Shown: piece by piece, positions 19,141 through 55,342 of the stretch
How the letters are laid out: every line of letters starts with the position of its first letter
Numbering within the stretch: position 1 is the stretch's first letter
DNA from: an uncultured Verrucomicrobiota bacterium
Lineage (GTDB): Bacteria > Verrucomicrobiota > Verrucomicrobiia > Opitutales > UBA9783
Reading direction: 5' to 3'
DNA: 62,463 nucleotides
Assembly: GCA_946186275.1 (NCBI GenBank)
Contig: CAMHMO010000007.1
Location: 1-62,463 of the forward strand
The notes under the pieces: generated by a model
Databases searched by the model: none
What the model was told of the DNA's origin: nothing
What the model saw: the letters and a program-made list of their open reading frames with translations, nothing else
Translations under genes and position numbers: made by a program

Positions 19141-19332
19141 TCAGAGCATTTGGAGCATATTGCGCGCCTGCTTGACGATGCGCGTCAAATGCCGCTGTTC
19201 GTGCGCCGTTAAACGCGTTTTGCGTCGCGGCAAAATCTTACCCGTTTCCGTTACAAACCGTCGCAGTTTATCCGTATCGCGCCACGTTAAATCCAGCACC
19301 GACGGACGTTGTTCTTTTTTAGTATCGTTCAT
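19141..19332 (-). CDS. rpsR: Small ribosomal subunit protein bS18
   Basis: 63 residues from the ATG at 19332 (MNDTKKEQRPSVLDLTWRDTDKLRRF). LRRFVTETGKILPRRKTRLTAHEQRHLTRIVKQARNMLQML matches the bS18 core, where LRRFITERGKILPRR and the HQR-L-AIKRAR pattern are hallmarks. bS18 binds the platform of the 30S subunit with bS6. The family usually sits in rpsF-ssb-rpsR-rplI; here it is alone, divergent from thiE, which is unusual. It is shorter than the common 75-80 residues because of a trimmed N-terminus. A TTG start 12 bases upstream is possible. Confidence 0.88.
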   Translation of the reverse strand: MNDTKKEQRPSVLDLTWRDTDKLRRFVTETGKILPRRKTRLTAHEQRHLTRIVKQARNMLQML

Positions 19333-19463
19333 GCTTGTCAACAAACAGCCTTATTGAAGGCGGTTTCATGCAAAATGCAAGCTCAAAACCGCCGTTTCCG
19401 ACGGCATCGCTCACGGGCGCACGCGAAAATTGCCTTTTGTTGCAAAAATACGTACAAAAAGGC

Positions 19464-20114: not shown

Positions 20115-20687
20115 AAACCGCCTGCGGAAATTTAAACGAATATACTTATGAACGGATGTTACAGTATGATAGTCAGACAAAACAGATTTAAATGTGCTCC
20201 GGCAGGAATACCTGTGGAACCGTGCGGTTTAAGGGGATAGTGTAGCAGCTTAAGGGGGAAAATCTCTGCCGTCATAGATTTGGGAGTGCTTTGAACTTGG
20301 GCGATTGGCAAACGACCGTTGAGATTTGCAACACGGATATCGATATTACCATACCCTCGCGGGAATAATTCACTCGGGGTACCTTTGGGAGAATATACCC
20401 AAAAGCGGTTGTTTCTCGAAACGAATTTTTACAAACAAAGCATATACTCTTTGCGAAACGCGGATATTTCGGTACTTTTTTCGCCCGAAACCGCCTTCCG
20501 CCTCCGATGTCTTTGAAAATACCCGAAAGCACATCCGTTCTCGTAAAAAAACGAAGCTCCACGCCATTCGAATGCACATCCGACCCAATCTCCGAAAGCA
20601 GTTGCCTCTCCATTTCACGTAGGACGGCCTTTGTTCGCTCCCTCGATTTTCATACAATAATCTTTACCCTCCCCGCCTGCCCGATAT
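20115..20687. other. Gene-free region between thiE and thiD
   Basis: 573 bases without a supported gene. The first half is G-rich on the plus strand from about 20180 to 20300 and contains short hairpins such as CAGG-aata-CCTG near 20203-20214 and ACCG-tg-CGGT near 20219-20228. Around 20372-20400 the sequence GGGGTACC, TTT, GGGAGA, ATATACCC looks superficially like the 5' half of a thiamine riboswitch, but the second half is missing. Its function is unknown. Confidence 0.45.
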
Positions 20688-21500
20688 ATGTTATTTTCCG
20701 TGAAGACGGTTCTTACGATTGCCGGGAGCGATTGCAGCGGCGGAGCGGGCATCCAGGCCGATATTAAGACCATTCTTGCGAACGGAGCCTACGCGATGAG
20801 CGTTCTCACGGCGATGACGGCGCAAAATACGCTCGGCGTGACCGCCGTTCAACCGTCGACAACGCAGTTTCTCGCGCAACAGCTGGATGCGGTTTTTACG
20901 GATATTCATCCCGATGCCGTTAAAATCGGTATGGTTTTTTCTTCCGATTTGGCGCATATCATCGGCGAAAAACTGCGCAATTATCATGCAAAAAACATCG
21001 TTCTCGATCCCGTTATGGTCGCTTCGAGCGGCGCACAGTTATTACAATCGCAGGCTGTCGATGCGTTAAAGAAAGAACTCTTCCCCTTGGCGCGCGTGAT
21101 CACCCCGAACCTCCCCGAAGCCGAAGCCCTTCTCTCAAAGGAAATCCCCGACAAAGCCGCTATGGAAGCGGCGGCGAAACAACTGTCGGACACTTTCGGT
21201 TGCGCTGTTTTGCTCAAAGGCGGACACCGTTCATCCGACGCCGATGATGTGCTGTACGAACAGAGAACATTTCATTGGTTTCACGGCGAACATATTTCCA
21301 CTTCAAATACCCACGGAACAGGATGTACGCTGTCGTCCGCGATCGCCGTTTTTCTTGCAGAAGGTTGCAATCTGCCGACTGCCGTGCAACGCGCCAAGAA
21401 CTATGTAACGGGAGCATTAAAGGCGAACCTTTGTCTCGGACACGGTTGCGGACCGATCGATCACGGATGGGAAATAAAGAAGAACCTTTCAAATTCCTAA
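20688..21500 (+). CDS. thiD: Hydroxymethylpyrimidine/phosphomethylpyrimidine kinase
   Basis: 270 residues, typical length. ThiD phosphorylates HMP and then HMP-phosphate to HMP-pyrophosphate, the ThiE substrate. The ribokinase-fold signatures are VLTIAGSDCSGGAGIQADIKTI at the start, YAMSVLTAMTAQNTLGV, VKIGMVFSSD, VLDPVMVASSGAQLL, ITPNLPEAEALL, AVLLKGGHRSSDADDVL, and the anion-hole motif NTHGTGCTLSSAIAVFLAEG near the end. Everything expected for ATP and substrate binding is present. Together with thiE it indicates at least partial thiamine synthesis or pyrimidine salvage. A second start codon a few residues in would also be acceptable. Confidence 0.93.
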   Translation: MLFSVKTVLTIAGSDCSGGAGIQADIKTILANGAYAMSVLTAMTAQNTLGVTAVQPSTTQFLAQQLDAVFTDIHPDAVKIGMVFSSDLAHIIGEKLRNYHAKNIVLDPVMVASSGAQLLQSQAVDALKKELFPLARVITPNLPEAEALLSKEIPDKAAMEAAAKQLSDTFGCAVLLKGGHRSSDADDVLYEQRTFHWFHGEHISTSNTHGTGCTLSSAIAVFLAEGCNLPTAVQRAKNYVTGALKANLCLGHGCGPIDHGWEIKKNLSNS

Positions 21501-21654
21501 AACGCAACATCACGATGGCATGCTTCGAAAAAAGCATTCCTTCGGGTGAAAATCGGGAAAATGAACCTTTGAACATTTTGCCGCATCCCGGGTTTCGCCT
21601 CCCCGCAATCATCATTGACATTCCCTTCCGCATTCGTTTCCCTGGAAGCGGTCT

Positions 21655-22899
21655 ATGAAGAGTGATTTGTTGCCCGTTTTGGAGTACATGGAGCACGAAA
21701 AGGGCATTGCGCGCGCGGACATGATTGCTCTGATTGCCGAAGCTGTCAGCAGTGCCGCCAAAAAAAGTGCGGATTGCCGACAAACGGTGCGCGTGGAGAT
21801 TGACCCGAAGACAGGTGAGTTGAAAGCGTGGGCGCAATTTAAAGTGGTTGATTCGGTGACCGATCCCGACGGCGAAATTCATATTACGAAGGCGCGGCAA
21901 CAAAATCCCGAAATCAACCCGGGTGAAATCTTCGAACAGCCGATCGATCCGTCCGTTTTGGGGCGTATTGCCGCCAAGACCGCGCAACAGCTGATCATGC
22001 AGCAGGTGCGCTTTCACGAAAAACAGCACATTTACGAACAATTTCGCAATCGCATCGGCAGTATTCTTTCGGGCGTCGTTCGGTTTCAGGAGCGTGGCAA
22101 CACCACGATCGACTTCGGCAAGGCGGAAGGGACGCTGTTTCGCAACGAAGCGATTTGGAGCGAACATTTCAACCCCGGCGACCGTATCACTTGTTTATTG
22201 CAGGGCATTAAGGAAACGCCGCGCGGTCCCGAGCTGATGCTGACGCGGGCACATCCCGATTTCATTAAGGCGCTGATGACGTGCGAAATTGCGGAGTTGG
22301 CGGACGGTTTGATTGAGATTAAGGCGATTGCGCGCGATCCAGGATTTCGAACGAAGCTTTGCGTCGATACGCACGATTCGCGCATCGATCCGGTTGGCGC
22401 CTGCATCGGTTCGCACGGTTCCCGTATTAAAGGCGTTCTAAAGGATTTGGGGCAGGAAAAGGTTGATGTGGTGCGCTATTCCGAAGATATCCGAACGTTA
22501 GTTTTGGAGGTGGTACGTCCGGCAATTCCGCAGTCGTTGCACATCGACGAAGTCAATCGCGTTGTTTCCTTCAGCCTGGAGGAAAAAGATTTCGCAATTT
22601 TTGTCGGCAAAAGCGGTCGCAATTTACGATTGGCGTCGCGTCTCATCGGCTACGAAATCCAAGTTGAGCACCTGCAGCGCGTCGGTTTGAACTTTGAAGA
22701 TAAAAAGGCGCAGGCAATTCAAGTGCTGTTGCAATTGCCGAACGTTTCGGAAACCGTTGCCGAACATCTGGTGGAGACGGGCATTACGGATTTGGAAGCG
22801 CTTTCTGAAGCATCCGAAGAGGATTTGACCGCCGTCGGTCTGACGTCGGAAGAAGCCTGGGCGGTTCTTACAGCGGCGAAGGAGAAAGCCGCATCCTAA
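21655..22899 (+). CDS. nusA: Transcription termination/antitermination factor NusA
   Basis: 414 residues. NusA binds RNA polymerase and nascent RNA and modulates pausing, termination and antitermination. The N-terminal polymerase-binding domain is followed by an S1 domain near 135-200 (GSILSGVVRFQERGNTTIDFG), then PELMLTRAHPDFIKALM. The KH1 domain has ADGLIEIKAIARDPGFRTKLCV and RIDPVGACIGSHGSRIKGVLKDLGQEKVDVVRYSED. The KH2 domain contains AIFVGKSGRNLRLASRLIGYEIQV. A short helix-hairpin-helix-like tail (LVETGITDLEALSEASEEDLTAVGL) ends the protein. rimP, the usual upstream partner, is missing. infB follows after 6 bases and rbfA overlaps infB, so nusA-infB-rbfA form one operon. Confidence 0.95.
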   Translation: MKSDLLPVLEYMEHEKGIARADMIALIAEAVSSAAKKSADCRQTVRVEIDPKTGELKAWAQFKVVDSVTDPDGEIHITKARQQNPEINPGEIFEQPIDPSVLGRIAAKTAQQLIMQQVRFHEKQHIYEQFRNRIGSILSGVVRFQERGNTTIDFGKAEGTLFRNEAIWSEHFNPGDRITCLLQGIKETPRGPELMLTRAHPDFIKALMTCEIAELADGLIEIKAIARDPGFRTKLCVDTHDSRIDPVGACIGSHGSRIKGVLKDLGQEKVDVVRYSEDIRTLVLEVVRPAIPQSLHIDEVNRVVSFSLEEKDFAIFVGKSGRNLRLASRLIGYEIQVEHLQRVGLNFEDKKAQAIQVLLQLPNVSETVAEHLVETGITDLEALSEASEEDLTAVGLTSEEAWAVLTAAKEKAAS

Positions 22900-22905
22900 A
22901 AAACG

Positions 22906-25365
22906 ATGAACGAACAGAAGATCAGACTTTACATGGCGGCGCGCCGATTGGGCGTGTCAAATGAAGTTTTGATCGAAAAACTGCGTGCCGGCGGAATGTC
23001 CGTCAGAGGCGCCACCGACCTTGTTTCGGATCGCGAAGTGTCCGCGATACTAGAAAAGGTTCGTTCAAACGACACCCCGTCCTCCCCGACAGCAGAACAG
23101 ACCGCTTCGAGCGTACGTCTTCCGACACCGCGCGCTCCGCTTCGTTCGCCGCAGGTCGGATTACCGCGATCGCCGTTGTCAAGCGCACCGAAACCGCCCT
23201 TGACGATAATTCCGAAGGTTCAGATACCATCGAAACCGCCTTTGTCGCCCGTTTCGGGTTTCGGTTCTCAAAGGTCGTTAAAAAACACTCCGTCGCTGAC
23301 GGCACCGAAGCCTCCGCCTTTACTCTTTAAACCAAAACCGTCGGTCGCGCCGGAGTTAAACCCGTTCGCGTCCTCGGGAGCGGGAATGTTTGCGCCGAAG
23401 CCGAATGCGTTCGGTGCGAAGCCGAATGTTCCGCCGACGTCGTTCGTATCTTCGGCAACGGTCAAACCTTCGTTGTCCGCGCCGAAACCGCCGCCGTTGC
23501 CGAATTTTTCGAAACCCAAACCCCTGACGGCACCGCCCGTTCCGACGGATTTATTTCGGCGACCGAAGGTCGAAGAGGAGCCGTCGGAGCCGATTAAGAA
23601 AAAAACGCTTTCGGTTAAGCCGCCGCTGGTGTTGCGCGAGCTGGCGATGTTGCTGGACGTAAAGCCGTTCCGTTTGATTTCCGAGCTGATGCAACAAGGC
23701 ATTTTCGCCTCCATCAATCAGGTGATGGACGAAACCGTCGCCCAAAAGCTGGCGGCAAAGTACGGCGCGGAACTGATTTTCAAACGCCGCACGCAGGACA
23801 ACAGCACCCAAAAGCCGAAGGAAGCGCCGAAAATCGACGAATCGAAGTTGCTGGAACCGCGCCCGCCGATTGTGTGCATTCTCGGGCACGTGGATCACGG
23901 CAAAACGACACTTTTGGACACTATCCGCAAAGCGCATGTGGCGGCAAAGGAAGCGGGGGGCATTACGCAACACGTCGGTGCCTATCAGGTAGAGGCGAAC
24001 GGCAAAAAGATTACCTTTCTGGATACACCGGGGCATGCCGCTTTCTCGAAAATCCGACAACGCGGCGCGACGGTGACCGATATTGCGGTGTTGGTGGTGG
24101 CAGCGGACGACGGTTTCATGCCGCAGACGGAGGAAGCGCTGCGGTTCGCACAAAAGGAAAACGTTCCCGTGGTGGTGGCGATCAACAAAATCGATGCCAA
24201 AGGTGCCGATTTGGATCGCGTCAAACAGCAGATGCAGAAGCACGGCATCATGTCGGAAGACTGGGGCGGTCAAACGCTCTGCGTCGGCATTTCCGCTCTG
24301 AAAGGCACCAACGTCGATCAACTGTTAGAGTTGATTTTATTGCAAGCGGAAATGATGGATTTGAAAGCCAATCCGCAGGGCGCGGCGGAAGGTGTCGTCA
24401 TCGAATCCCGCATCGAAGCAGGGCGTGGTGCGACGGCAACCGTGATTGTCAATAAAGGAACCTTGCGTTCCGGCGATGCATTGGTGTGCGGCGGTTGTGT
24501 CTGCAAAGCCCGCGCATTGCTGGACGAGAACGACAAAACGCTCAAAGAGGCGCGACCCTCAACCCCCGTGCAGGTACTCGGTTGGTCGGATGCGCCGACG
24601 GCGGGCGCAACGTTTCATGCCGCCAAAAACGAAAAGGAAGCGCGGCGGGAAGCGGAAGAAACGGCGCGTTCCGAACAAGCCTCCGAAACGGGCGATGCAC
24701 GGAAAATCCAAAACATCGACGATCTGATGGCGGCACTGGACGCCAAAGAACAGAAAGTCTTGCGCGTCATTATCCGCGGCGACGTTCACGGCAGTGTCGA
24801 AGCATTGGTTGATTGTTTATCGGCAATCCAGAGCAAAAAGGTAGATTTGACGATTGTGGATGCCGGCGTCGGACAGATTACACTTAACGACATTCATCTG
24901 GCACACGCTTCCAAAGCGGTTATTGTCGGCTTTAACACAAGGCTCGAAAACGGTGCGCAGGCGGCGGCAAAGCACGACGGCGTACGCATTTTACAGCACA
25001 ACATTATTTACGAACTGATCGATGAGGTCAAAAACGCCATGCGCGAACTGCTCGATCCCGAGTGGTCGGAGAATAAACTCGGTTCGGCGGAAGTTCGCCA
25101 ACTGTTCACGGTGGCAAAGCGATCGATTGCCGGTTGCATGACGGTTGCCGGGAAGATGGTGCACGGCGCAATGGCGCGGTTGGTTCGTAAGGGGCAAGTG
25201 TTGGCGGATACGAAAATCATTACCCTGAAACGCTTCAAGGACGATGTGAACGAAGTCAAATCGGGGTATGAATGCGGCATTGAACTCGGCAACCCGTCGG
25301 AATCCTTGTGTGCGGGCGATGTCATCGAGTGCTACGAAAAGGTTTCGAAGTTACCTGACTTATGA
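22906..25365 (+). CDS. infB: Translation initiation factor IF-2
   Basis: 819 residues. IF-2 is the GTPase that places fMet-tRNA on the 30S subunit and promotes subunit joining. The N-terminal IF2_N domain (IRLYMAARRLGVSNEVLIEKL) is followed by about 170 residues of Pro/Lys/Ser-rich low-complexity linker (APKPPP and FGAKPN repeats) and a second IF2_N-like segment near 237-285. The G domain has G1 GHVDHGKTT near 326, the switch AGGITQHVGAYQV, G3 DTPGHAAF near 373 and G4 NKID near 427. The G3-adjacent segment reads SKIRQRGA where most have TxMRARGA. The beta-barrel and fMet-binding C-terminal domains are complete. It overlaps rbfA by 4 bases. Confidence 0.96.
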   Translation: MNEQKIRLYMAARRLGVSNEVLIEKLRAGGMSVRGATDLVSDREVSAILEKVRSNDTPSSPTAEQTASSVRLPTPRAPLRSPQVGLPRSPLSSAPKPPLTIIPKVQIPSKPPLSPVSGFGSQRSLKNTPSLTAPKPPPLLFKPKPSVAPELNPFASSGAGMFAPKPNAFGAKPNVPPTSFVSSATVKPSLSAPKPPPLPNFSKPKPLTAPPVPTDLFRRPKVEEEPSEPIKKKTLSVKPPLVLRELAMLLDVKPFRLISELMQQGIFASINQVMDETVAQKLAAKYGAELIFKRRTQDNSTQKPKEAPKIDESKLLEPRPPIVCILGHVDHGKTTLLDTIRKAHVAAKEAGGITQHVGAYQVEANGKKITFLDTPGHAAFSKIRQRGATVTDIAVLVVAADDGFMPQTEEALRFAQKENVPVVVAINKIDAKGADLDRVKQQMQKHGIMSEDWGGQTLCVGISALKGTNVDQLLELILLQAEMMDLKANPQGAAEGVVIESRIEAGRGATATVIVNKGTLRSGDALVCGGCVCKARALLDENDKTLKEARPSTPVQVLGWSDAPTAGATFHAAKNEKEARREAEETARSEQASETGDARKIQNIDDLMAALDAKEQKVLRVIIRGDVHGSVEALVDCLSAIQSKKVDLTIVDAGVGQITLNDIHLAHASKAVIVGFNTRLENGAQAAAKHDGVRILQHNIIYELIDEVKNAMRELLDPEWSENKLGSAEVRQLFTVAKRSIAGCMTVAGKMVHGAMARLVRKGQVLADTKIITLKRFKDDVNEVKSGYECGIELGNPSESLCAGDVIECYEKVSKLPDL

Positions 25366-25727
25366 AATCCTTTCGGCTCATCCGCATCAACGAACTGTTA
25401 AAACGCGCCATCAGCGACTATTTGCGAAAGCATTACACCGCGGAAGCGGTCAGCATCACGATCACGCAAGTCAAAACCGTTGATGATTTAAAAAAGGCGG
25501 ACGTCTATTTCTCGGTATTTCGCCCGGAAGATCGTACCTCCGCCTTCCAATTTTTAAAAAAAGAACGCAATGCCATTCAATTCGGCATCAGTAGAGAGGT
25601 ACGCTTAAAATACACTCCGCAACTGTTCTTCGTTTGGGATGCGCTGTTGGAGAAAACGCATCAGACGTGGAAGGTTTTGAGAGAGGTGGAGGAAAACACA
25701 GGAAAGCTTCAAAACGGAGATTGTTGA
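25362..25727 (+). CDS. rbfA: Ribosome-binding factor A
   Basis: 121 residues. RbfA binds the 30S subunit during late 16S rRNA 5'-end maturation. The KH-type fold is recognisable: RINELLKRAISDYLRKHY at the start, VSITITQVKTVDDLKKADVYFSVF (usual VT...V.vs.DL..A.vyvs), FQFLKKERNAIQFGISREVRLKYTPQLFFVWD (usual LR..L...l.lR..PeL.F..D). The ATG lies in the overlap ATGA with the infB stop, indicating translational coupling. It closes the nusA operon; no truB or rpsO follows, in contrast with many bacteria. Confidence 0.9.
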   Translation: MKSFRLIRINELLKRAISDYLRKHYTAEAVSITITQVKTVDDLKKADVYFSVFRPEDRTSAFQFLKKERNAIQFGISREVRLKYTPQLFFVWDALLEKTHQTWKVLREVEENTGKLQNGDC

Positions 25728-44165: not shown

Positions 44166-45686
44166 ATGAGCGCCCTGCTCAAGCTGATGACGGGGACTCT
44201 CTGTTCGCGCATTCTGGGGTTTTTAAGGGACATTGTTTTTTTCGCCGTTCTGGGATCTTCGCGGGAAGCCTCCGCATTTTTAATCGCCTTCGCGCTTCCG
44301 AATTTATTCCGTCGGTTGTGCGGCGAAGGGGCTCTGAGTGCCGCGTTTATTCCCGTTTTCGCGCAACGTTACGCGCAAAAACCACAGACGGTCGGCGATT
44401 TTTTGAACCGTTTCTTCACGCGCTTCGGCGTTTGGCTGGGACTTGCCGTCGGTGTCGGAATGCTTGCCACGGGTATCGGGCAAACAATAACAATGTCGCT
44501 AAAATGGCAAACGGTACTGTTTTTGACCTTGTTAATGTTGCCGTATTTATGGTTCATTTGCACCGCGGCGTTGCTGAACGGCGCACTGAATGTACTTAAT
44601 AAATTCTCGCTGACGGCATTTTCGCCCGTTTTGCTGAATTGCTCCTTTCTCGTCGGTCTTGCCCTGTGCCCGCTGTGCGAAACACCGCATACGCAGGTTT
44701 CGCTGTTGTCCGTCTGCGTGGTCATCGGCGGTTTTTGGCAGTACTTTCTCCCGAAACTTCAACTAAGACGCAACGGCTTTCGGTTAAAGTTCCGTTTGGA
44801 AAGCGACGAAGACGTCATGCGCGTCGGACAATTATTTCTGCCGGGCGTTTTCGGAGCGGCGGTGTTTCAGCTGAATGCACTGCTCGGGCGTTTCTTCGCC
44901 TACACGGTCGATGACGGCGGTGCGTCATTTCTGTATCTTGCCAATCGTTTTCTCGAATTGCCGCTCGGGTTGTTTTCGTTCTCGATTTTTTCGGTCGTTT
45001 TTCCGCAACTGTCATTGTTAATTGCCAAAGACGACGCCCGTTCCGCAAGGGTCTTGCTTCAAAACGGCATCCGTCTGTTGCTGTTGCTTCTTATCCCCGC
45101 CGCAATCGGGCTGTTTATCCTTGCGGAACCAATTTTGGATCTCTGCTTTCGTTGGGGAAAATTCTCGCAAACCGACATTCGGCAGGTCGTGCCGTTGCTG
45201 AAAATTTTCGCCGTTGGTCTGCCTTTATTCGGGGTAACGGCACTGTTCGCACGCATCTTTTACGCGCATAAAGATACCAAAACGCCCGTGAAGATTTCCG
45301 TTTATACCCTTGTTGCCTACGTACTTTGCGCCGTTCTTTTGATGAAACCGTTCGGCGTCGCGGGTCTCGCACTCGCTTCGGTTTTAAGCAACGTCCTTCA
45401 ATGGTTTCTGCAAATTTATTTTCTGCATCAAAAATATCCCGACCTCCGCGGTATGTTGCGAGTTCTCCGAAAATTACCGTGGCTCGGCTTTATTTTATTC
45501 ACAATTTTCCTTTATTTTTCCTCAAACGCCCTCCCGTTGTCGTGCGATAAAATCCGCGATGCGTTGCGTTTAGGCACGTTAATAACCGCCGCCGTTGCGT
45601 TTTACCTTGTTTTATTAAGAGTTTTTGACAAAACGTCGTTTCGACAACTGATACGGTTTCGGTTGGATGCGAAGACGGGGATGTAG
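44166..45686 (+). CDS. murJ: Lipid II flippase MurJ
   Basis: 506 residues, 13-14 hydrophobic segments of the MviN family. It flips lipid II across the inner membrane for peptidoglycan synthesis. The conserved N-terminus SRILGFLRDIVFFAVLGSSREASAFLIAFALPNLFRRLCGEGALSAAFIPVF matches the family closely, including the RxxGxxRD segment and the FRRLxxEGAxxxAFxP motif. GVFGAAVFQLNALLGRFFA, YLANRFLELPLGLFSFSIFSVVFPQLS and VTALFARIFYAHKDTKTPVKISVYTL are also characteristic. Its presence with rodA indicates that a peptidoglycan-like wall or septal material is still made. It follows batE by 4 bases and is probably co-transcribed; its stop lies 4 bases from convergent trmB. Confidence 0.95.
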   Translation: MSALLKLMTGTLCSRILGFLRDIVFFAVLGSSREASAFLIAFALPNLFRRLCGEGALSAAFIPVFAQRYAQKPQTVGDFLNRFFTRFGVWLGLAVGVGMLATGIGQTITMSLKWQTVLFLTLLMLPYLWFICTAALLNGALNVLNKFSLTAFSPVLLNCSFLVGLALCPLCETPHTQVSLLSVCVVIGGFWQYFLPKLQLRRNGFRLKFRLESDEDVMRVGQLFLPGVFGAAVFQLNALLGRFFAYTVDDGGASFLYLANRFLELPLGLFSFSIFSVVFPQLSLLIAKDDARSARVLLQNGIRLLLLLLIPAAIGLFILAEPILDLCFRWGKFSQTDIRQVVPLLKIFAVGLPLFGVTALFARIFYAHKDTKTPVKISVYTLVAYVLCAVLLMKPFGVAGLALASVLSNVLQWFLQIYFLHQKYPDLRGMLRVLRKLPWLGFILFTIFLYFSSNALPLSCDKIRDALRLGTLITAAVAFYLVLLRVFDKTSFRQLIRFRLDAKTGM

Positions 45687-46468: not shown

Positions 46469-49400
46469 ATGGAGTCAAAAGAAATCTTGAAAGAGTTTGC
46501 CGGGAAGCTTGCCGGATTGTCGGCGGCGGCAAAGGTGGTTGCCATCGCGGGTGCGGTCAGCACATACAGCGGAACGGGACATGCGGCGGAGAATGCCGTT
46601 AAAGCGGAAAATCGGCTTATAACGGCTGTCGAACCTCGGAAGAGCGATGCTTCGTCCGATGCGAAGAAAGAAGAGAGCGTTGTCGCAAAAACCGAGGCGG
46701 TTGTCGCGCCGAAAGTTTCGGAAGCAACCGTGAATGCGCTTTTGGCGAGCAAAGAAAAGGACGTTGCGAAAGCGTCGGACACGAAGGTAACGGCAGTTGC
46801 CAAAGCGAACGTTTCGCCGAAGAACGAATCGAAAACCGCACCGAAGTACGATACGCGATATTATCAGGCACCCGGGACGACAAAACCGTCCGATCGGACA
46901 TCCCGTCCGGCGCGTTCCTCTTATCGGTCTTCGCCGTCTTATTCGTCGTCTTACGATTACAATTACAACAGTGCACCGACGGCTCCGTCCTATGCGACGT
47001 CAACGTCCGATAACGCGTTCGGCGAAACAGCTTCGTCTTCGAGACGGTCTTCGGGGTATTCGTCTTCGTCAAGACGCCCCTACGCTTCCGGAAGTTACCG
47101 TTCGTCGCGTTCGCGGTCAACGGAAACCGACGAGACACGTTTGACAAGCGTCGGCGAATCTCTTGCAAGCGGAAAAAAAGGAAGCGATGCGGGAGCAACG
47201 GCATCTTCGTCTTCGAAGTCCGGGCAGTCGGCGTTGAATTCTTTTCAGGGTTTCGGTTTCGGCGGTACTCAAACGGTCTACAAAGACCGCGTCGTTGAGA
47301 AAGTCGTCAGCAGCGAAGAGGCGGAAGAAGCATTAAAAATCGTTCAAGCGGCAAAAGAAAAAGGGTTGAATGCGGAAGCGTTGGCGGAAAAAATCAAAAA
47401 CTTTGAGCAAGACAATACGCAGATCGGATCCGATGCCGATGCGGAAAAAATTCACGCGTTGGAACATGAATTGCAGGTCGAAAGAACGCAGAATGCAAAC
47501 TTGCGCCAACAGGTGCAACAGGCGGCAAACGCAAATGCACAACCGCAGGGCATCAATGCCGTAATTCCTCCTCCTCCTCCGCCGCCGCCGGGGGTTATTG
47601 CGCAGGGTGGCAACGGCGTTCCGTTACCTCCGGGAGTTCCTCCGCCTCCGGGAGTTCCGGGTATTCCGGCGGCTCCGGGAGTTCCGGGTATTCCGGCGGC
47701 TCCGGAGTTGCCCGTGGATGAACACGGCATTCCTTTACCGCCGCCGTTGCCGGAGGCACCGACGGTGTCGGTCGGCGTTCCTCAGACTCCGAAAGGAAAG
47801 AGCGCAATGAACCTGTTGGATGATCTGGTTCATGACGTAGATAAGAAAGAGCGGAAAGAGCGGATGAAGCTTAGACAGGAAGAAATGGAGGAGCAACGGG
47901 CTGAGGAGGATTTCGTTGGAACCGCGAATGCGTTTTTCAAAAAAATCGACGAAGCCGGGAGCAGTAAACAGACCAATCTGTTAATCAATGTTGCAAAGAC
48001 TGATTATTCCCGCAAGCAGATCGGGAGAGTGCTGAGGATTAACCGCAGAAAAAAAGGAACGTATGCTTTTTATGAAGGTCTGATCCGAGCACTGTCGAAC
48101 TTCGCAAACAAAGATTTTGCAGATGTCGCGAATCTGAATCCGGCAGATGAGAAAGATGAGAAAGCATACAATCTCAAAATTGCAAAACGCTACGGTTGCA
48201 CAACCTTGCTGAAAGACGCCTGTCCGGAAATTCTGAGGGCGGTCGCTTACTTTGAACGAAACGATAAGGATGTGTTGCTCGCCGCATGGAAAGAATGCAT
48301 GAAGGCGGAAAGATTACCCGAGTTTCTCCCGGACGCATATAAATATAAGGCGGGAGATTATTATGCGTTGTGTGCCGATTGTTTCAAAAAATACGACGTC
48401 AGTTTATCCTATGCAACGGACGCCGTTATAAGCAGGCTTGCGAGAAAGATGCTTGACGAGGAATGTGTCAGCAAAAACAAAGGCGATGCCAAATTCCGTC
48501 GGGAACAATTTCAGAACGCGGTCGAGGCTGCCGTATCGTTTCTGGAAAAAGACGATCCGAGCGTTGATAAGGAGCGGATTGCAAAGCGGATTGTAGGCAA
48601 ATATCTCGAAGACATCGAAGAAATTGACCTGAATGAGGTAAAAAACGAAAAAACGTTCTTCGAATACGCAGACTATTGGGAAATGGCGGACGCGTTGAAG
48701 GTATTGAAAGACAAAGGTGTCCCGGACAATAATGTCGCGTTCGATGCGGATAACGGCGTTCAGGGGAAGGGAAGCGCTTTGGATCGTGCCCTTCTGGCGA
48801 TTGTGAAGGATTCGAAGGCAAAACAGTGGTACGATGACGCAACGATAGAAAAAATGCTTCGGGAAAGCAGGAATGAGTTTGTTCTGGAGAACGATAAAAA
48901 AGTCATGGATCCGCCGACGAAGCGGCAATTGTTGGATTTGCTTCGCGAATTCAACATGGCTTTTCTGTTTTCGTGTTTCAATGATAAGTATCTGACAGGC
49001 GAAATAAAAAGGATTGCCGGTCAACAGGCAGTTCTTCGAACCCGGCTCAAGGCAATGCTCAAAACCATTCAGGTTTCTTCGTTGATAAAGGTCGAAGACG
49101 AGTTAAAGCAGGAATGGGACAAATGGATAGAGCACAGCGGAGGCAAGAATGTTCTTTTCAAAAAAGGAAAAGGCATTTTCAAGGAAATGGATGATCAGTT
49201 TAAGTCGTTGTTGTCCGATCTCAAAAAAGACCGCGAAACGGGACTGGCGAAATACGAGGAACAGCAGACTTATCCAATTATTTCGAAGATTCGAAAAGCA
49301 GCCATGACGGGCTCCGGAGAACTGTTAAAGCTTGCGATTACCGGCGAAGAGGAAACGGAACTTATGCTCAACAACAAGAGGTTCATGGGTAAAGTTCTGC

Positions 49401-50923
49401 AGACCGCACTGTTGTTCTCGAAGAGTAAAAGATGGTGGCTGAAGGGTCAATGGGTCGGAAGGTTTTTGAAAGACCTACCTTTGAAAACAGCGGGAGTAAC
49501 CTATCTGGCACTGGAAGATTCTTCGTTCAATAAACTGGAATCCCTGAACGACTGTTCGACGCTCGAGATCTTAAATTTCGTGAAGGTGAATTTTTACGAA
49601 AATGCGCTCAACGGTTTGAAACTGCGTAACGCGAAGCTGTATTTCATGGATGTAAAGAACACCGATACGCTCTATACGCATGAAGGTATTCTGAAACGTC
49701 TGGCGGACGCGAATGTTGAGATGTTTTTCAAAAAGTGCCCGTGGGCCGTGAACGGTGTAAAGCAGCCCGTCGCAGCCGATCCGGCTCAGGGAGGTCTTCC
49801 GGGTCTTCACCACGTCGGCGGCGGTGGCAATAACAATGTCGCCGGGGTTGTTCCGGGAGGAAATCCCTTCGGTGTGAACTTAAAGAAAGGGTCGCAGAAT
49901 AATGGGAACGCCGTTGCAGGGGGCTTCCAATTACCGGCTCTCAAGAAAAAAGGCGAAATAAATGCAGGTGAGAAAGTAATACTGAAAGGACGCGGTGAGG
50001 TACAGGATCATGCCGTGGATATGATCAATCAGATACGAAATCGAATGAAAGCACTTCCTGAGGATGCAAATCTCGGTGATGAGTTCTTTGCGAACTGGAA
50101 AGCAATCTGGGAAAGCGATGATGTCGAAACGATCGAGGCGGATCTTCCGGGTGCCATGTTTGAGTCGAGAGTAAATGTCGAAGAATTCTTCAATACGGCT
50201 GTTGCGATTGCGAACCAAGCAGGCAAGCCTCTGGTCCTTATCGGAAGATTTGAAACGGCATACCGTTGGGATTCTGAAAACAAAGGCAGAGTGGCTCGTG
50301 CGTTGCTGAAACTGAAAAGTCCTCTTAAAATCGCTTCCACGTCCCAGTATGGTACCGATGTGGTCATGTTGAACGAGCTTTTGACTACAATGGCGGATCT
50401 GAAGAAAGACGGCATGCAGTTGAAATCCGTCGAGTTGGATCGTATTGTGAGTGCAGGCACTCCGGCTGAAAATCAAAAGTTGTTGACGTGTTTGGGAGAT
50501 CTTGGTGTGGAAACAGTCATCTTCTCGCATCTGGATGATGCGGCGATGGAAGTAAGGCAGGAAGTAACAAATGCTCAGGGGAAGAAAGGATACAAGATGG
50601 TCTTGGAAAAATTCAACGCCTGGAAGGATTCATTTGATTTTGCCGGTGAAAACAGCGATGCATGGAAGCATTTGTTCAAGAAGATCAAAGTCGTGGATCT
50701 TCGAAATAATGACGATATATCCGTCGAGCGTTTAAATGACCTGAAGGCACGTCTTGAGGAGATCAAGAATGAAAGGGTTGCCGTTGCCGGGAACGCCGAC
50801 GAAGCTCCCGGTGCTCAGCAACCCGAAAAGATCGCATTGCAGTCCGTTCTTTTGCCGGACAATGCGGATGCGGGATTGGCAACGGAAATCAAGAATCTCG
50901 TGGATGAATTAAAGGGAAATTAA
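46469..50923 (+). CDS. Giant polyproline protein 1 (1484 residues)
   Basis: No family is recognised. From the ATG at 46469: an N-terminal hydrophobic stretch (LAGLSAAAKVVAIAGAVSTYSGTGHAA) that could be a Sec signal; a Ser/Tyr/Arg-rich disordered region about 115-260 (SSYRSSPSYSSSYDYNYNS); a coiled-coil stretch near 280-350 (EEAEEALKIVQAAKEKGLNAEALAEKIKNFE); polyproline blocks about 365-430 (PPPPPPPPG, then two identical GVPGIPAAP repeats); a charged segment KKERKERMKLRQEEMEEQ; then roughly 1000 residues of helical and LRR-like sequence, for instance VTYLALEDSSFNKLESLNDCSTLEILNF and MQLKSVELDRIV. A Gly/Asn-rich linker lies near 1110-1160. It resembles giant protein 2 in plan. A role at the host interface or as cytoskeletal element is inference from architecture. 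Confidence 0.8.
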   Translation: MESKEILKEFAGKLAGLSAAAKVVAIAGAVSTYSGTGHAAENAVKAENRLITAVEPRKSDASSDAKKEESVVAKTEAVVAPKVSEATVNALLASKEKDVAKASDTKVTAVAKANVSPKNESKTAPKYDTRYYQAPGTTKPSDRTSRPARSSYRSSPSYSSSYDYNYNSAPTAPSYATSTSDNAFGETASSSRRSSGYSSSSRRPYASGSYRSSRSRSTETDETRLTSVGESLASGKKGSDAGATASSSSKSGQSALNSFQGFGFGGTQTVYKDRVVEKVVSSEEAEEALKIVQAAKEKGLNAEALAEKIKNFEQDNTQIGSDADAEKIHALEHELQVERTQNANLRQQVQQAANANAQPQGINAVIPPPPPPPPGVIAQGGNGVPLPPGVPPPPGVPGIPAAPGVPGIPAAPELPVDEHGIPLPPPLPEAPTVSVGVPQTPKGKSAMNLLDDLVHDVDKKERKERMKLRQEEMEEQRAEEDFVGTANAFFKKIDEAGSSKQTNLLINVAKTDYSRKQIGRVLRINRRKKGTYAFYEGLIRALSNFANKDFADVANLNPADEKDEKAYNLKIAKRYGCTTLLKDACPEILRAVAYFERNDKDVLLAAWKECMKAERLPEFLPDAYKYKAGDYYALCADCFKKYDVSLSYATDAVISRLARKMLDEECVSKNKGDAKFRREQFQNAVEAAVSFLEKDDPSVDKERIAKRIVGKYLEDIEEIDLNEVKNEKTFFEYADYWEMADALKVLKDKGVPDNNVAFDADNGVQGKGSALDRALLAIVKDSKAKQWYDDATIEKMLRESRNEFVLENDKKVMDPPTKRQLLDLLREFNMAFLFSCFNDKYLTGEIKRIAGQQAVLRTRLKAMLKTIQVSSLIKVEDELKQEWDKWIEHSGGKNVLFKKGKGIFKEMDDQFKSLLSDLKKDRETGLAKYEEQQTYPIISKIRKAAMTGSGELLKLAITGEEETELMLNNKRFMGKVLQTALLFSKSKRWWLKGQWVGRFLKDLPLKTAGVTYLALEDSSFNKLESLNDCSTLEILNFVKVNFYENALNGLKLRNAKLYFMDVKNTDTLYTHEGILKRLADANVEMFFKKCPWAVNGVKQPVAADPAQGGLPGLHHVGGGGNNNVAGVVPGGNPFGVNLKKGSQNNGNAVAGGFQLPALKKKGEINAGEKVILKGRGEVQDHAVDMINQIRNRMKALPEDANLGDEFFANWKAIWESDDVETIEADLPGAMFESRVNVEEFFNTAVAIANQAGKPLVLIGRFETAYRWDSENKGRVARALLKLKSPLKIASTSQYGTDVVMLNELLTTMADLKKDGMQLKSVELDRIVSAGTPAENQKLLTCLGDLGVETVIFSHLDDAAMEVRQEVTNAQGKKGYKMVLEKFNAWKDSFDFAGENSDAWKHLFKKIKVVDLRNNDDISVERLNDLKARLEEIKNERVAVAGNADEAPGAQQPEKIALQSVLLPDNADAGLATEIKNLVDELKGN
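47648..47701 (+). repeat. 27-bp tandem duplication in the polyproline region
   Basis: Two identical 27-base units (starting CCGGGAGTTCCGGGTATT) lie back to back and encode two copies of the nonapeptide GVPGIPAAP. Such in-frame repeats can vary in copy number. Confidence 0.8.
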
Positions 50924-51270: not shown

Positions 51271-52833
51271 CTATTTCCCGATACAAAACTTCGAAAAGAC
51301 CTTATCCAAAACCTGCTCGTAATCAACGCGCCCGACAATCGCTTCCAGGGATCTCAGAGCTTCCTTTAAATCCGCCGCCAGGCAATCGTCGGAATTTCGT
51401 TGTTCCAAAAGCATCGAAGCATGTTTCAACGATTGATACGCCTGACGCAACGCTTCCGCATGCCGTTCGTGCACCAAAAAACCGACGTTGGAAACGTCTT
51501 TGTAACGTTCGTCCAGAAATGCTTTTAACCGTTGCCGCAGAATCGGCAAACAGGCTTCATCTTTAATGGAAAGTGCCAAGACGGGCGAAAGAAATCCGTC
51601 AGAGGGTGTTGCTTTTCCCTCAAAATCCGACGATGTTGTTTGCTTTAAATTAGATAATGTCGCCGTTTCTCTTGTCTCAACATCCGAACACTCCGTCGCT
51701 TTTCCCTCCGTAACTGCCGAAGTCCCTTCCTCTTCTGCCTTTAACATTCGGAGCACGTCATCGATCTTCGGAAATTGCTCCGCCACCGACGGATGTACCC
51801 CCCAATCGGCTTTATTCAGCAAAACAAGCACCTTTTCGGGCGGCACTTTTGCTTTCAACGCCTCCAAATCGTCCTTCCACGGTTGAGAACCGTCGATGAC
51901 CCACAGGATCAAATCCGCCTTTTGAAGCTGTTCCCACGTTTGTTCAATCCCCAGGCGTTCGATGTCGTTGTCGGTATCGCGCAAACCCGCCGTATCCACC
52001 AAACGCAGGGCGTAGGGTTCGAACGAGAGGGTTTCGGCAATAAAATCGCGCGTCGTCCCAGGAACGAAACTGACAATCGCGCGTTCAAATCCAAGCAATC
52101 GGTTAAAAAGCGTACTTTTCCCGGCATTCGGCAAACCGACAATCACCGTACAAATACCGTCTTTCAGCGACACATAGGCTTCGTGCGCGCACAAGAGACG
52201 TTCAATGGTCTGCATGAGAGCAGATTGTTGCTCCAAAAAACGCTTGCGATTTTCCTCCGGCAAATCTTCTTCCGGAAAATCCAGATACGCCTCAATTACG
52301 GAAATTTGATCGGTTAACTGTTGAATAAAAGCGTCGATTTCACGGCTGAAAGACCCCGATAACTGCTTTTGCGCCAGATTTAAAGCTTTTTCCGATTGCG
52401 CGTGAATGACATCCGCGACCGCTTCGGCGCGGCAGAGATCGATTTTGTGATTAAGAAACGCGCGGCGCGTAAATTCCCCGGGTTCTGCCTGCCGACAGCC
52501 GCGTTCAAACGCATCTTTCAATAATTGACGTACAATCAGCGGATTGCCGTGACAGGAAACTTCCAGCATTGGTTCTCCCGTATAAGAGGAACTTTTTTCG
52601 AAAAACGTCCAAATAACCTCATCCAAGGGTTCGCCCGACACCAAACGATAAAACCCGTGATACGCTCGACGCGGATCAAAGGTTTCTTTCCCGAAAATCT
52701 CCCGTGCCAGTCGCTCGCAGTCCGAACCGCTGAAACGCACCACGGCAATCCCCGAAACGCCGTAAGGTGTTGAGAGTGCCGCAATGGTATCCACGTTATT
52801 ATCAAATTCTGAAAACGACGTATTCGCAAGCAC
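51271..52833 (-). CDS. mnmE: tRNA uridine-5-carboxymethylaminomethyl GTPase MnmE
   Basis: 520 residues, longer than the usual 450. With MnmG it modifies U34 of certain tRNAs. N-terminal folate-binding domain: DTIAALSTPYGVSGIAVVRFSG, SYTGEPMLEVSCHGNPLIVRQLL, EPGEFTRRAFLNHKIDLCRAEAVADVIHAQ. The G domain holds GLPNAGKSTLFNRLLG, PGTTRDFIAE, the switch DTAGLRDTDNDIE and LLNKADWG. A 50-residue Thr/Glu/Ser-rich insertion (AEEEGTSAVTEGKATECSD...) sits between NKAD and the G5 loop (ALSIKDE). The C-terminus DKVFSKFCIGK is canonical, with the catalytic cysteine. mnmE often neighbours oriC; here a DnaA-box cluster lies immediately upstream. Confidence 0.94.
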   Translation of the reverse strand: MLANTSFSEFDNNVDTIAALSTPYGVSGIAVVRFSGSDCERLAREIFGKETFDPRRAYHGFYRLVSGEPLDEVIWTFFEKSSSYTGEPMLEVSCHGNPLIVRQLLKDAFERGCRQAEPGEFTRRAFLNHKIDLCRAEAVADVIHAQSEKALNLAQKQLSGSFSREIDAFIQQLTDQISVIEAYLDFPEEDLPEENRKRFLEQQSALMQTIERLLCAHEAYVSLKDGICTVIVGLPNAGKSTLFNRLLGFERAIVSFVPGTTRDFIAETLSFEPYALRLVDTAGLRDTDNDIERLGIEQTWEQLQKADLILWVIDGSQPWKDDLEALKAKVPPEKVLVLLNKADWGVHPSVAEQFPKIDDVLRMLKAEEEGTSAVTEGKATECSDVETRETATLSNLKQTTSSDFEGKATPSDGFLSPVLALSIKDEACLPILRQRLKAFLDERYKDVSNVGFLVHERHAEALRQAYQSLKHASMLLEQRNSDDCLAADLKEALRSLEAIVGRVDYEQVLDKVFSKFCIGK

Positions 52834-52841
52834 TCATCCGC

Positions 52842-53090
52842 TGTGAATAATCTGTGGATAAGTCGGAAATAACGTATATTAAAACTGTTGATAACTCGGA
52901 AAGGCAGATTTTTATTCACCGCCGTCCTCACTTATTCACATTACATTCACAACATGTTTTTCACAACCGTCGCTGTTTTGAACAAGGATTGGCGGTTGGA
53001 AATCAAGTTATTCACACGTATAAGAAGACGGTTAATTTTTAAAATTAAAGAAATTATTCTTATAAAAAAGCTCTACGGTTTCATCGAAAA
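52842..53090. other. Candidate replication origin (oriC): DnaA-box cluster and AT-rich stretch
   Basis: Four perfect DnaA boxes of the type TTATNCACA occur within 175 bases: minus strand at 52842-52850 (TTATTCACA) and 52853-52861 (TTATCCACA), plus strand at 52932-52940 and 53008-53016 (both TTATTCACA). Single-mismatch copies lie at 52886-52894 (minus), 52912-52920 and 52957-52965 (plus). The boxes face in two groups. Immediately right, 53031-53078 is almost pure A/T (TTAATTTTTAAAATTAAAG and similar), a good DNA-unwinding element. The expected number of such boxes by chance here is below 0.02. It lies between divergent mnmE and folE. dnaA itself is not in the window. Confidence 0.78.
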
Positions 53091-53107
53091 ATGCTAGAAG
53101 GAGAACA

Positions 53108-54094
53108 ATGGATGAACCTCCGATCGTTCGCGAATGTTTAAAGGAACTTTTCGAACAGTGCGGTGAAGATCCGCAACGGGAAGGGTTGCAAAAAACACCG
53201 ATGCGTTTTTTAAAAGCTTTCGAAGAGTTGACGCAGGGTTATCGTCAAACGTTGCAGGACGTAATGAACGATGCGTTGTTCGAATGTGACAACAATGCGC
53301 CCGTTGTTGTTGAAAATATACCCTTTTATTCCCTGTGCGAGCACCATCTTTTGCCGTTTTTCGGACACTGTACGATCGCCTATAGTCCAAACGGAAAGGT
53401 GCTAGGGGTATCAAAGCTCTATCGCATCGTCAATCTGTTTGCCCGTCGGTTACAGTTGCAGGAGCGTTTAACGCAGCAGATTGGTGAAAGCATTCGTGAA
53501 GTGACGGGTGCGCGCGGGATTTTTGTGGAAATGATTGGCGAACATTTGTGCGTCGCCATGCGCGGCGTTCAACGGTACAACTCAAAAATGCGTACCTTTT
53601 ACCGCTTCGGAGAGCCGATTGAGGATTTTCCGCGACCGTCGGCATCGGATGCGTCGGATTTCGGATACCTTTGTACAAAAGCCGAAGCGGTTTCGGGGAA
53701 TGTCGGCGGTTGCAACGAAAAGCACGATGCGTCTTCACTAGGGCTCTTAACGGTTACCACAAAGGAGTTTCCGTTAAAGATCGGCTGTTATTCGGAGGAA
53801 CAAACGCGAACGACGCCTGTGACCTTGAGCCTCGAACTGAAACTGCCTGATGATTACGGAACCGCGGATGATTTAAGTTGCACGGTCGATTATGACACGC
53901 TGATACAGCATCTGGAAAAAACCGTCCTACAACAACAGTTTCAACTTTTGGAGTACGCCGCTCGGAAAATTTACGAAGCGATCCGAAGTTTTCTGCAAGC
54001 GTATTGCAAGCAGGCGAAAGTGCGCGTGACATTGACGAAAACGCTGTCGCACGCGCTGTTACGGGACAGTCGCTTTACGTACGGGGATTTTTAA
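53108..54094 (+). CDS. folE: Fusion of GTP cyclohydrolase I and dihydroneopterin aldolase
   Basis: 328 residues; normal FolE has about 190-220. Residues 1-180 are GTP cyclohydrolase I, which makes dihydroneopterin triphosphate: GEDPQREGLQKTPMRFLKAFEELTQGY, the zinc site SLCEHHLLPFFGHCTIAY, GVSKLYRIVNLFARRLQLQERLTQQI and EHLCVAMRGVQRYNS. After a low-complexity linker of about 35 residues, 216-328 match dihydroneopterin aldolase FolB: KIGCYSEEQTRTTPVTLSLELKL, DDLSCTVDYDTLIQHLEKTV, QQFQLLEYAARKIYEAI (catalytic region) and VRVTLTKTL. One polypeptide thus carries an early and a later step of folate synthesis; folQ, folK and folP are not seen here. AAGGAG precedes the ATG. Confidence 0.88.
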   Translation: MDEPPIVRECLKELFEQCGEDPQREGLQKTPMRFLKAFEELTQGYRQTLQDVMNDALFECDNNAPVVVENIPFYSLCEHHLLPFFGHCTIAYSPNGKVLGVSKLYRIVNLFARRLQLQERLTQQIGESIREVTGARGIFVEMIGEHLCVAMRGVQRYNSKMRTFYRFGEPIEDFPRPSASDASDFGYLCTKAEAVSGNVGGCNEKHDASSLGLLTVTTKEFPLKIGCYSEEQTRTTPVTLSLELKLPDDYGTADDLSCTVDYDTLIQHLEKTVLQQQFQLLEYAARKIYEAIRSFLQAYCKQAKVRVTLTKTLSHALLRDSRFTYGDF

Positions 54095-54100
54095 GAAGTG

Positions 54101-55342
54101 ATGTTCACAAAGCTTTGGAACCCTCTTTGCGAACGCCTGCGGTTTTGGAAAGAACAGTGGAAATTTTTGGATAAAAAACCGCTTCCGTGGGATCGCGTGA
54201 CACCGTGCGTCATGCTGGTATTGAGCCTTATCGGGATTGCTTTTATGTACGCCGTTCAGCAGGACGGCGGCGGTCACAAGTGGAAAGCGCAGGTGATGTG
54301 GCTGTGTTTGGGCGGCATCATATATTATGTGACCGCCAAAATTCCCTACCATTGGTTTTCCGTCCGCGCGCACCTTTTTTATGCGGGTTCCGTCGTTTTG
54401 CTGTTGTTATTGTGGACGCCGTTGGGACGTCGCATCGGCGGCAGTCGGCGCTGGCTGAATTTGGGCATCACCTTTCAACCGTCGGATGTTTGCAAACTCA
54501 CGACCTTGCTGTTGATCGCCGCAACGTTGATGCGCAGTCGGCTGAGGACATGGCGCGAAGCTTTACCGACGGTGCTTTTTGTGTTGTTTGTCGGTGCGTG
54601 TTCGTTCTTTCTTATTTTCCTGCAGCCGGATTTGGGTTCCGCCATGGTGATTCCGGTGCTTGTTTTCGGTCTGTTGTTCGTTTCCCGATTGACGTTGAAG
54701 TTTTTCTTCGGATTGGTTTTGCTTTTCATGATTGCTTTAACGCTCATTGTTTGCGACACGCGCGGTTATTATTGCCAACTAAAACAACAGCTTTCTGTTT
54801 TTAAGCCTTTTCTGCCGTTGAAAGATTACCAACGAAACCGTATTTTGGCGTTTGCCGTACCGACGGCAATCGATCCCGATGGCATCAAAGTCGGTTGGCA
54901 TCGGAAACAGTCGCTGATCGCCGTCGGATCGGGCGGTTTATTCGGCAAAGGCTGGAAGCACAACACACAGGCGCGTTTGGGATTTTTGCCGAAAGCGGCG
55001 TCGTTGGATGATTTTATTTTTTCCGTTCTGGCGGAAGAAACGGGTCTGTGCGGCTCCTGTTTTGTGCTTGCGCTCTATGCGCTTCTCGTTTTCGCTGATC
55101 TTGTGGTCGCTCAGAAGGCGCGCGATCGCTTGGGGTGTTATTTGTGCGTTGGTGTCGGATTATTGACGATGAGCCACATGTGGATCAACGTCGGAATGAC
55201 GCTCGGGCTGATGCCGATTACCGGTTTGCCGGCGCCGTTTCTCAGTTACGGTGGTTCGTTCCTGCTGACCTGCTGTTTCGCGCAGGGATTGGTTCAGAGC
55301 GTGTATCGGTTTCGTCGGATGGACGGTTGGGCAAACGGGTGA
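54101..55342 (+). CDS. rodA: Peptidoglycan glycosyltransferase RodA (SEDS family)
   Basis: 413 residues with about ten membrane segments. RodA polymerises lipid II during elongation together with PBP2. Family features: RWLNLG in RIGGSRRWLNLGITFQPSDVCKL, QPDLGSAMVI near 177-186, the extracellular GWHRKQSLIAVGSGGLFGKGWKHNTQARLGFLPKAASLDDFIFSVLAEETG (with the catalytic region before EETG), and the C-terminal LMPITGLPAPFLSYGGSFLL. All motifs are those of RodA rather than FtsW. The N-terminal basic stretch is longer than usual. A GTG at 54098 is one codon upstream. It starts 6 bases after folE-folB. Confidence 0.94.
   Translation: MFTKLWNPLCERLRFWKEQWKFLDKKPLPWDRVTPCVMLVLSLIGIAFMYAVQQDGGGHKWKAQVMWLCLGGIIYYVTAKIPYHWFSVRAHLFYAGSVVLLLLLWTPLGRRIGGSRRWLNLGITFQPSDVCKLTTLLLIAATLMRSRLRTWREALPTVLFVLFVGACSFFLIFLQPDLGSAMVIPVLVFGLLFVSRLTLKFFFGLVLLFMIALTLIVCDTRGYYCQLKQQLSVFKPFLPLKDYQRNRILAFAVPTAIDPDGIKVGWHRKQSLIAVGSGGLFGKGWKHNTQARLGFLPKAASLDDFIFSVLAEETGLCGSCFVLALYALLVFADLVVAQKARDRLGCYLCVGVGLLTMSHMWINVGMTLGLMPITGLPAPFLSYGGSFLLTCCFAQGLVQSVYRFRRMDGWANG

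What the first reader, a model, noticed from the sequence alone, without database searches (positions are those of the whole stretch)
52834..53107. Probable chromosomal replication origin between mnmE and folE-folB
Four perfect TTATNCACA boxes, three single-mismatch boxes and a nearly pure A/T stretch lie in 274 bases between divergent genes. That density is far above chance. mnmE is a known neighbour of oriC in many bacteria, but dnaA, rpmH and mnmG are not next to it here, so the local arrangement would be new for the lineage. Alternatively these boxes may regulate mnmE or folE.
Basis: partly seen in the sequence, partly recalled or inferred. Interest (0 to 1): 0.82.

Follow-up and report, generated by a model that had tools for sequence, protein, structure and literature searches.

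The report
Replication origin between mnmE and folE
This 274-base gap is very probably the place where an uncultured gut Opitutales bacterium starts copying its chromosome, an ordinary DnaA-type origin that sits far from the dnaA gene and keeps its layout in relatives even where the neighbouring genes have changed.

Summary
The gap 52834-53107 holds four perfect TTATNCACA boxes and three one-mismatch boxes, the densest cluster in the readable 873 kb of this 1.02 Mb, 16-contig Opitutales assembly. It also holds an A/T stretch that is the third least stable 50-bp site there. (1) A leading/lagging codon classifier trained on other contigs places the strand switch exactly at mnmE|folE in the window, and exactly there in one same-genus genome (one gene away in the other). 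(2) In a second genus, GC3 skew switches exactly at the same gap in both species. (3) In two more genera the same layout sits at the skew switch although mnmE, or both neighbours, have been replaced; this argues against a mere mnmE or folE regulatory site. (4) The layout is textbook: distal boxes point outward, the last box points to the unwinding element 15 bp away. dnaA, dnaN, rpmH and mnmG lie on other contigs, and the dnaA contig shows no strand switch. Separation of dnaA from the origin is not new: a closed genome from another family has it too. About 14% of the genome is masked and no replication assay exists. New member of a known kind.

The parts
52834..53107 (.). oriC-type region, whole gap between mnmE and folE-folB
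   Evidence: densest box cluster of the readable genome; strand switch at 52833|53108
52842..52850 (-). DnaA box TTATTCACA (distal, points outward)
   Evidence: 9/9 bases identical in three same-genus species
52853..52861 (-). DnaA box TTATCCACA (distal, points outward)
   Evidence: 7/9 identical
52886..52894 (-). DnaA-like box TTATCAACA
   Evidence: 8/9 identical
52912..52920 (+). DnaA-like box TTATTCACC
   Evidence: 9/9 identical, inside an 18-bp identical run
52932..52940 (+). DnaA box TTATTCACA
   Evidence: 9/9 identical, inside a 15-bp identical run
52957..52965 (+). DnaA-like box TTTTTCACA, poorly conserved
   Evidence: only 4/9 identical, may not be functional
53008..53016 (+). DNA-unwinding-element-proximal DnaA box TTATTCACA, points toward the A/T stretch
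   Evidence: part of a 45-bp identical run 53005-53049; composite box-NN-KATAA occurs once in the readable genome
53017..53031 (+). 15-bp spacer CGTATAAGAAGACGG between last box and A/T core
   Evidence: KATAA in the same register in six relatives
53019..53068 (.). predicted DNA unwinding element: least stable 50-mer of the gap
   Evidence: nearest-neighbour energy -50.1 kcal/mol against a genome median of -69.8; third least stable site
53032..53048 (.). palindromic A/T core TTAATTTTTAAAATTAA
   Evidence: identical in three species
51271..52833 (-). mnmE (tRNA-modifying GTPase), leading strand of the left fork
   Evidence: Pfam TrmE_N, MMR_HSR1, MnmE_helical; codon call 'lead'
53108..54094 (+). 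folE-folB fusion, leading strand of the right fork
   Evidence: Pfam GTP_cyclohydroI and FolB; codon call 'lead'
54098..55342 (+). rodA/ftsW family gene, conserved right flank in genera g1, g3, g4
   Evidence: Pfam FTSW_RODA_SPOVE
55513..57216 (+). rne/rng (RNase E/G), conserved right flank in genera g1, g3, g4
   Evidence: Pfam RNase_E_G

Best explanation
The gap is the chromosomal replication origin (oriC) of this Opitutales bacterium. DnaA, encoded on another contig, binds an array of boxes whose left members point left and whose right members point right. The filament growing from the last box (53008-53016) melts the A/T element 53019-53068. Helicase is loaded there and two forks leave, one through mnmE and one through folE-rodA-rne, both read co-directionally with the fork. 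Shown: the sequence elements, their conservation and the strand-composition switch. Inferred: DnaA binding, melting, helicase loading and actual initiation.
For: Box cluster unique in the readable genome. Third least stable 50-bp site, 15 bp beyond the last box, which points toward it; published origins have 8-18 bp and this orientation, with distal boxes outward (PMC5043019). Codon classifier trained without the window contig (leave-one-contig-out accuracy 0.89/0.91): 15 of 16 genes from 28 to 52.8 kb say '-' leading, all 4 genes to the right say '+' leading; optimum split 52833|53108, 4/5000 permutations. G005: optimum split 19641|19914, the same gap, 0/5000; G006 one gene off, 0/5000. In genus g4 the GC3-skew split is exactly mnmE|folE in G008 (59500|59780) and G007 (43455|43641), 0/500 each. 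In g3 (G004) and g2 (G001) the same layout sits at the best GC3 split with other neighbours. The dnaA/dnaN contig C2 shows no switch.
Against: GC3 skew alone does not place a switch inside the window contig: only 9.4 kb lies to the right and its genes have near-neutral GC3. 14% of the assembly is masked and 8% missing, so a competing cluster cannot be excluded there; raw GC3 hinted at an origin-type flip across the masked part of C4, though the codon classifier removes it except for one giant biased gene. g4 origins keep only one perfect box. The composite signature is absent from G002 and G003. Permutations ignore autocorrelation, and the G004 contig is too short for significance (95/500). 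No replication data.
Confidence: 0.92

Rival explanations
1. The boxes are a DnaA-regulated promoter region: DnaA represses or activates mnmE and/or folE-folB, and replication starts elsewhere.
For: The gap is a divergent promoter region and DnaA boxes can regulate genes; the dnaA upstream region in this family has its own conserved pair of boxes.
Against: The layout persists at the strand switch where mnmE is replaced (G004: RNase HII-side genes) or where both flanks are different (G001: malQ-like and mla-like genes). Strand composition flips at this gap in the window and in G005, G007 and G008. Seven boxes plus a top-ranked unstable element are more than a promoter needs.
Confidence: 0.04
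2. It is a DnaA-titration or reactivation site (datA/DARS-like) that does not initiate replication.
For: Dense DnaA boxes in a non-coding region can act as titration sites (established knowledge for E. coli datA/DARS).
Against: Titration sites lack an adjacent highly unstable element and do not coincide with the switch of leading and lagging strands; both are met here.
Confidence: 0.02
3. Ancestral origin: the gap was oriC when the strand composition was set, but initiation has since moved in this genus, for example into the masked part of C4.
For: Right-flank genes of the window genus have near-neutral GC3; raw GC3 on C4 suggests an origin-type flip across its masked 72 kb.
Against: Boxes and the 45-bp box/A-T block are still under constraint in three same-genus species; the codon classifier shows the switch at the gap in the window and G005, and no switch on C4.
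Confidence: 0.02

Closest known systems
Bacterial chromosomal oriC of the DnaA-box/DUE type (E. coli oriC, Epsilonproteobacterial oriC2; PMC5043019)
   Same: Cluster of TTATNCACA boxes, last box pointing to an A/T-rich unwinding element 8-18 bp away, distal boxes pointing outward, location at the strand-composition switch.
   Different: Not next to dnaA or dnaN; flanked by mnmE and folE-folB. E. coli oriC is flanked by mioC and mnmG (gidA) (PMC4446571, abstract). Box number and spacing are specific to this genus.
Basal unwinding system (box, spacer, DnaA-trios; PMC8287927)
   Same: A last box is followed by A-containing triplets (TAT AAG AAG) 2 bp downstream; g4, g3 and g2 relatives have TAT/GAT-AAN runs in the same register.
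   Different: Only three triplets in the window and a spacer shorter than the usual 10-13 bp; A/T-rich sequence gives such triplets easily, so assignment is uncertain.
oriC region of closed Opitutales relative G012 (another family of the order)
   Same: Strand switch in a gap with weak DnaA-like boxes, about 17 kb from mnmE, and far from dnaA.
   Different: Neighbour is dnaN and the boxes are degenerate (TTGTTCACA, TTATCCATA, TTATTCACG).

Membership tests
Bacterial chromosomal oriC (DnaA type) | Cluster of DnaA boxes well above chance, the main cluster of the genome | tested here: met
   readable 86% of the assembly
Bacterial chromosomal oriC (DnaA type) | A/T-rich, helically unstable element next to the last box (8-18 bp), last box pointing to it | tested here: met
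   criterion from PMC5043019
Bacterial chromosomal oriC (DnaA type) | Switch of leading and lagging strand composition at the site | tested here: met
   window, G005; G006 one gene off; G007, G008; G001 and G004 best split at the cluster. GC3 alone was inconclusive in the window contig
Bacterial chromosomal oriC (DnaA type) | Site conserved in relatives at the equivalent replication position | tested here: met
   7 of 9 family genomes, four genera. G003 lacks the close rodA homologue that flanks the origin in genera g1, g3 and g4, so the region is probably missing from its assembly; G002 not found
Bacterial chromosomal oriC (DnaA type) | Cognate DnaA with the TTATNCACA-reading domain IV | tested here: met
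   single dnaA, E=6.8e-75; translation contains GGRDHGTVIHACKAVE near its C terminus, the domain IV signature type (signature from own knowledge)
Bacterial chromosomal oriC (DnaA type) | Initiation in vivo (marker frequency, autonomous replication) | not testable with these tools
   no reads or cultures
Basal unwinding system (DnaA-trios) | At least three NAN triplets within 16 bp of a box | tested here: inconclusive
   TAT AAG AAG after a 2-bp spacer; low information in A/T-rich DNA, strand of the motif not established
dnaA/dnaN- or mnmG-linked oriC (the common gene order) | dnaA, dnaN, rpmH or mnmG adjacent | tested here: not met
   all four on other contigs; mnmE alone is adjacent. In g4 mnmE-mnmG adjoin the origin
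DnaA-titration site (datA-like) | Box cluster without an unwinding element and off the strand switch | tested here: not met

The most novel reading that the evidence does not exclude
In this family the origin is a self-contained module that holds its place at the strand switch while the genes beside it are exchanged (mnmE|folE in two genera, RNase HII side|folB remnant in a third, malQ|mla in a fourth). Part of this exchange is inversion across the origin, and dnaA stays elsewhere with its own DnaA boxes.
Probability: 0.55. Interest if true: 0.45.

Novelty: new member of a known kind. Interest (0 to 1): 0.38.

Why it matters
I found no paper describing an origin for this uncultured gut lineage; library searches for Opitutales or Verrucomicrobia origins returned nothing specific. 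The coordinates fix where replication starts, so read-depth growth-rate estimates (peak-to-trough) can be anchored for these rumen and gut species. The set of relatives shows an origin keeping its internal layout while its neighbours change, useful for separating what the origin needs from what merely sits beside it.

Tried and rejected
(a) Raw and GC3 skew on the window contig alone: the left 52 kb is clear, the right 9.4 kb too short and neutral; replaced by a synonymous-codon classifier. (b) C4 as rival origin from raw GC3: driven mostly by one giant biased gene, not supported by the codon classifier. (c) dnaA upstream region as origin: 2 perfect boxes, but no strand switch anywhere on its contig. 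(d) parS search for an origin-proximal marker: only two 2-mismatch sites, on C6; no use. (e) KOPS-like octamers: too few on C7. (f) Origin next to mnmE across the whole order: 27 of the 30 mnmE loci fetched are from other families and none of these has a cluster. (g) G038 local switch: confounded by a 41-kb gene. (h) No Rfam RNA element in the gap and no promoter signal above shuffles. (i) The dnaA coordinates first tried were in the wrong frame.

Full report
WHAT WAS CHECKED. The window is a complete contig (C7, 62463 bp) of a 1.02 Mb, 16-contig, 92%-complete assembly. Its closest relatives by MnmE are rumen Opitutales/Verrucomicrobia genomes at 82-83% identity. Shuffles of the same 274 bp never reach the observed numbers. 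Over the readable genome (872.7 kb; C1:8001-80000, C4:16001-88000 and C16 read N) this is the strongest 300-bp cluster, with 4 perfect and 3 one-mismatch boxes. The runner-up is the dnaA upstream region with 2 perfect and 1 one-mismatch box.

ANATOMY. From left to right: boxes 52842, 52853 and 52886 read on the minus strand, pointing left. Boxes 52912, 52932, 52957 and 53008 read on the plus strand, pointing right. Then comes a 15-bp spacer and an A/T element with a palindromic core 53032-53048. The 50-mer 53019-53068 is the third least stable site of the readable genome by nearest-neighbour energy. Published origins have the last box pointing toward the unwinding element at 8-18 bp and distal boxes pointing outward (PMC5043019); the window has exactly this. 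Among three same-genus species the block 53005-53049 (last box, spacer, A/T core) is identical over 45 bp. Five of the seven boxes are conserved at 8-9 of 9 positions, 52853 at 7, and 52957 is not conserved. Overall, box positions are only mildly better conserved than the rest of the gap (Fisher p = 0.04).

STRAND SWITCH IN THE WINDOW'S GENUS. In this genome, genes on contigs of one polarity show third-position GC skew of 0.26 (leading) against 0.00 (lagging). On C7 the left 52 kb is uniformly 'minus strand leading', but the short right arm is neutral by GC3, so GC3 alone finds no switch. I therefore trained a synonymous-codon classifier on C2, C3, C5 and C6 (leave-one-contig-out accuracy 0.89/0.91 with the left part of C7 included as a fifth test contig). 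Applied to C7 from a model that did not see C7, 15 of 16 genes between 28 kb and the gap say minus-leading and all four genes after the gap say plus-leading. The best change-point over the whole contig is 52833|53108 (4/5000 permutations). The same model gives 19641|19914, the same gap, in G005 (0/5000), and a point one gene away in G006 (0/5000). No other contig has an origin-type switch of similar support. C1 has a terminus-type switch near its masked stretch (4/5000). C2, which carries dnaA and dnaN, has no switch. The polarity labels of the training contigs come from their own GC3 skew; the permutations ignore autocorrelation and are a guide only.

OTHER GENERA OF THE FAMILY. In g4 (G008, G007) the mnmE|folE gap keeps one perfect box plus degenerate ones. 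GC3 skew alone switches exactly there: 59500|59780 and 43455|43641, 0/500 permutations each. In g3 (G004) three minus boxes then three plus boxes lie left of a folB remnant, rodA and rne. The left neighbour is no longer mnmE but a short gene next to an RNase HII gene, and the best GC3 split is at the cluster (9 genes only, 95/500). In g2 (G001) five boxes lie between malQ-like and mlaEFD-like genes, with the best split at the cluster (8/500) (the malQ and mla names are from reading the translations, not from a family search). The composite 'last box, two bases, KATAA' was defined after seeing these alignments. It is found once per genome in six genomes, twice in G006, and not in G002 or G003. 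G003 has no close homologue of the flanking rodA, so its origin region is probably missing from the assembly.

REARRANGEMENT. murJ lies 7 kb left of the gap in the window (44166-45686, plus strand) and about 5 kb right of it in G008 (64439-65962, minus strand). It keeps its orientation relative to the fork, as an inversion across the origin would do (identity in G008 judged from its translation). mnmG lies on the folE side in G005 and is adjacent to mnmE in g4; in the own genome it is on C8.

WIDER ORDER. Among 27 mnmE loci fetched from other families, none has a cluster next to mnmE. In the closed genome G012 (another family) the skew minimum lies between 2.21 and 2.34 Mb and gene-level analysis puts it at 2293276|2293555, next to a dnaN-like gene, with three degenerate boxes, about 17 kb from mnmE (2275171). 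dnaA is at 680 kb. In G038 the skew switches between 4.09 Mb and the record start, around mnmE at 4.24 Mb, with dnaA at 2.29 Mb near the opposite switch. So an origin near mnmE and far from dnaA is older than this family; the folE neighbourhood appears specific to it.

ALTERNATIVES. A regulatory role for mnmE or folE is not excluded as an extra function, but it does not explain the strand switch or the persistence of the layout beside other genes. A titration site explains neither the unwinding element nor the switch. A moved origin in the masked part of C4 is the remaining serious caveat and is not supported by the codon classifier.

CONCLUSION. A DnaA-type chromosomal origin, confidence about 0.92; initiation itself is inferred. 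New member of a known kind; moderate interest for its separation from dnaA and its changing neighbours.

Noticed in passing
G000 C2:87922-88158 (L017 7922-8158) and G001:C21:102075, G002:C21:51090, G003:C12:21383, G004:C65:1408: Pairs of TTATTCACA about 220-240 bp apart. In G000, G001, G003 and G004 they lie just upstream of dnaA (not checked for G002), so probably dnaA autoregulation; no strand switch on the dnaA contig of the own genome.
   Followed up: partly
window 46469-50923 (+) and 57467-62365 (-): Two very large proteins (1484 and 1632 aa, Pro-rich stretches) flank the origin on both sides; no convincing Pfam hit (one sub-threshold WTAP match).
   Followed up: no
window 44166-45686 versus G008:C12:64439-65962: murJ and neighbouring genes lie on opposite sides of the origin in two genera with the same orientation relative to the fork, as expected from inversion across the origin.
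   Followed up: partly
L125 (G004:C28) 10224-10505: Where the family has a folE-folB fusion, G004 keeps only a short ORF resembling the folB end (93 aa, no Pfam hit) next to the origin: apparent loss of folE in that genus.
   Followed up: no
L123/L124 (G001:C22) 16008-25425: Run of minus-strand genes resembling phage structural and terminase genes about 9 kb from the origin of a related genus: a likely prophage.
   Followed up: no
G000 C6:32887 and C6:39340: Two parS-like sites (2 mismatches to TGTTTCACGTGAAACA) 6.5 kb apart; would be expected near the origin if real, but the contig order is unknown.
   Followed up: no
G000 C4:7080-15596: An 8.5-kb open reading frame with strongly biased composition (GC3 skew -0.14) that misleads simple skew analysis.
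   Followed up: partly
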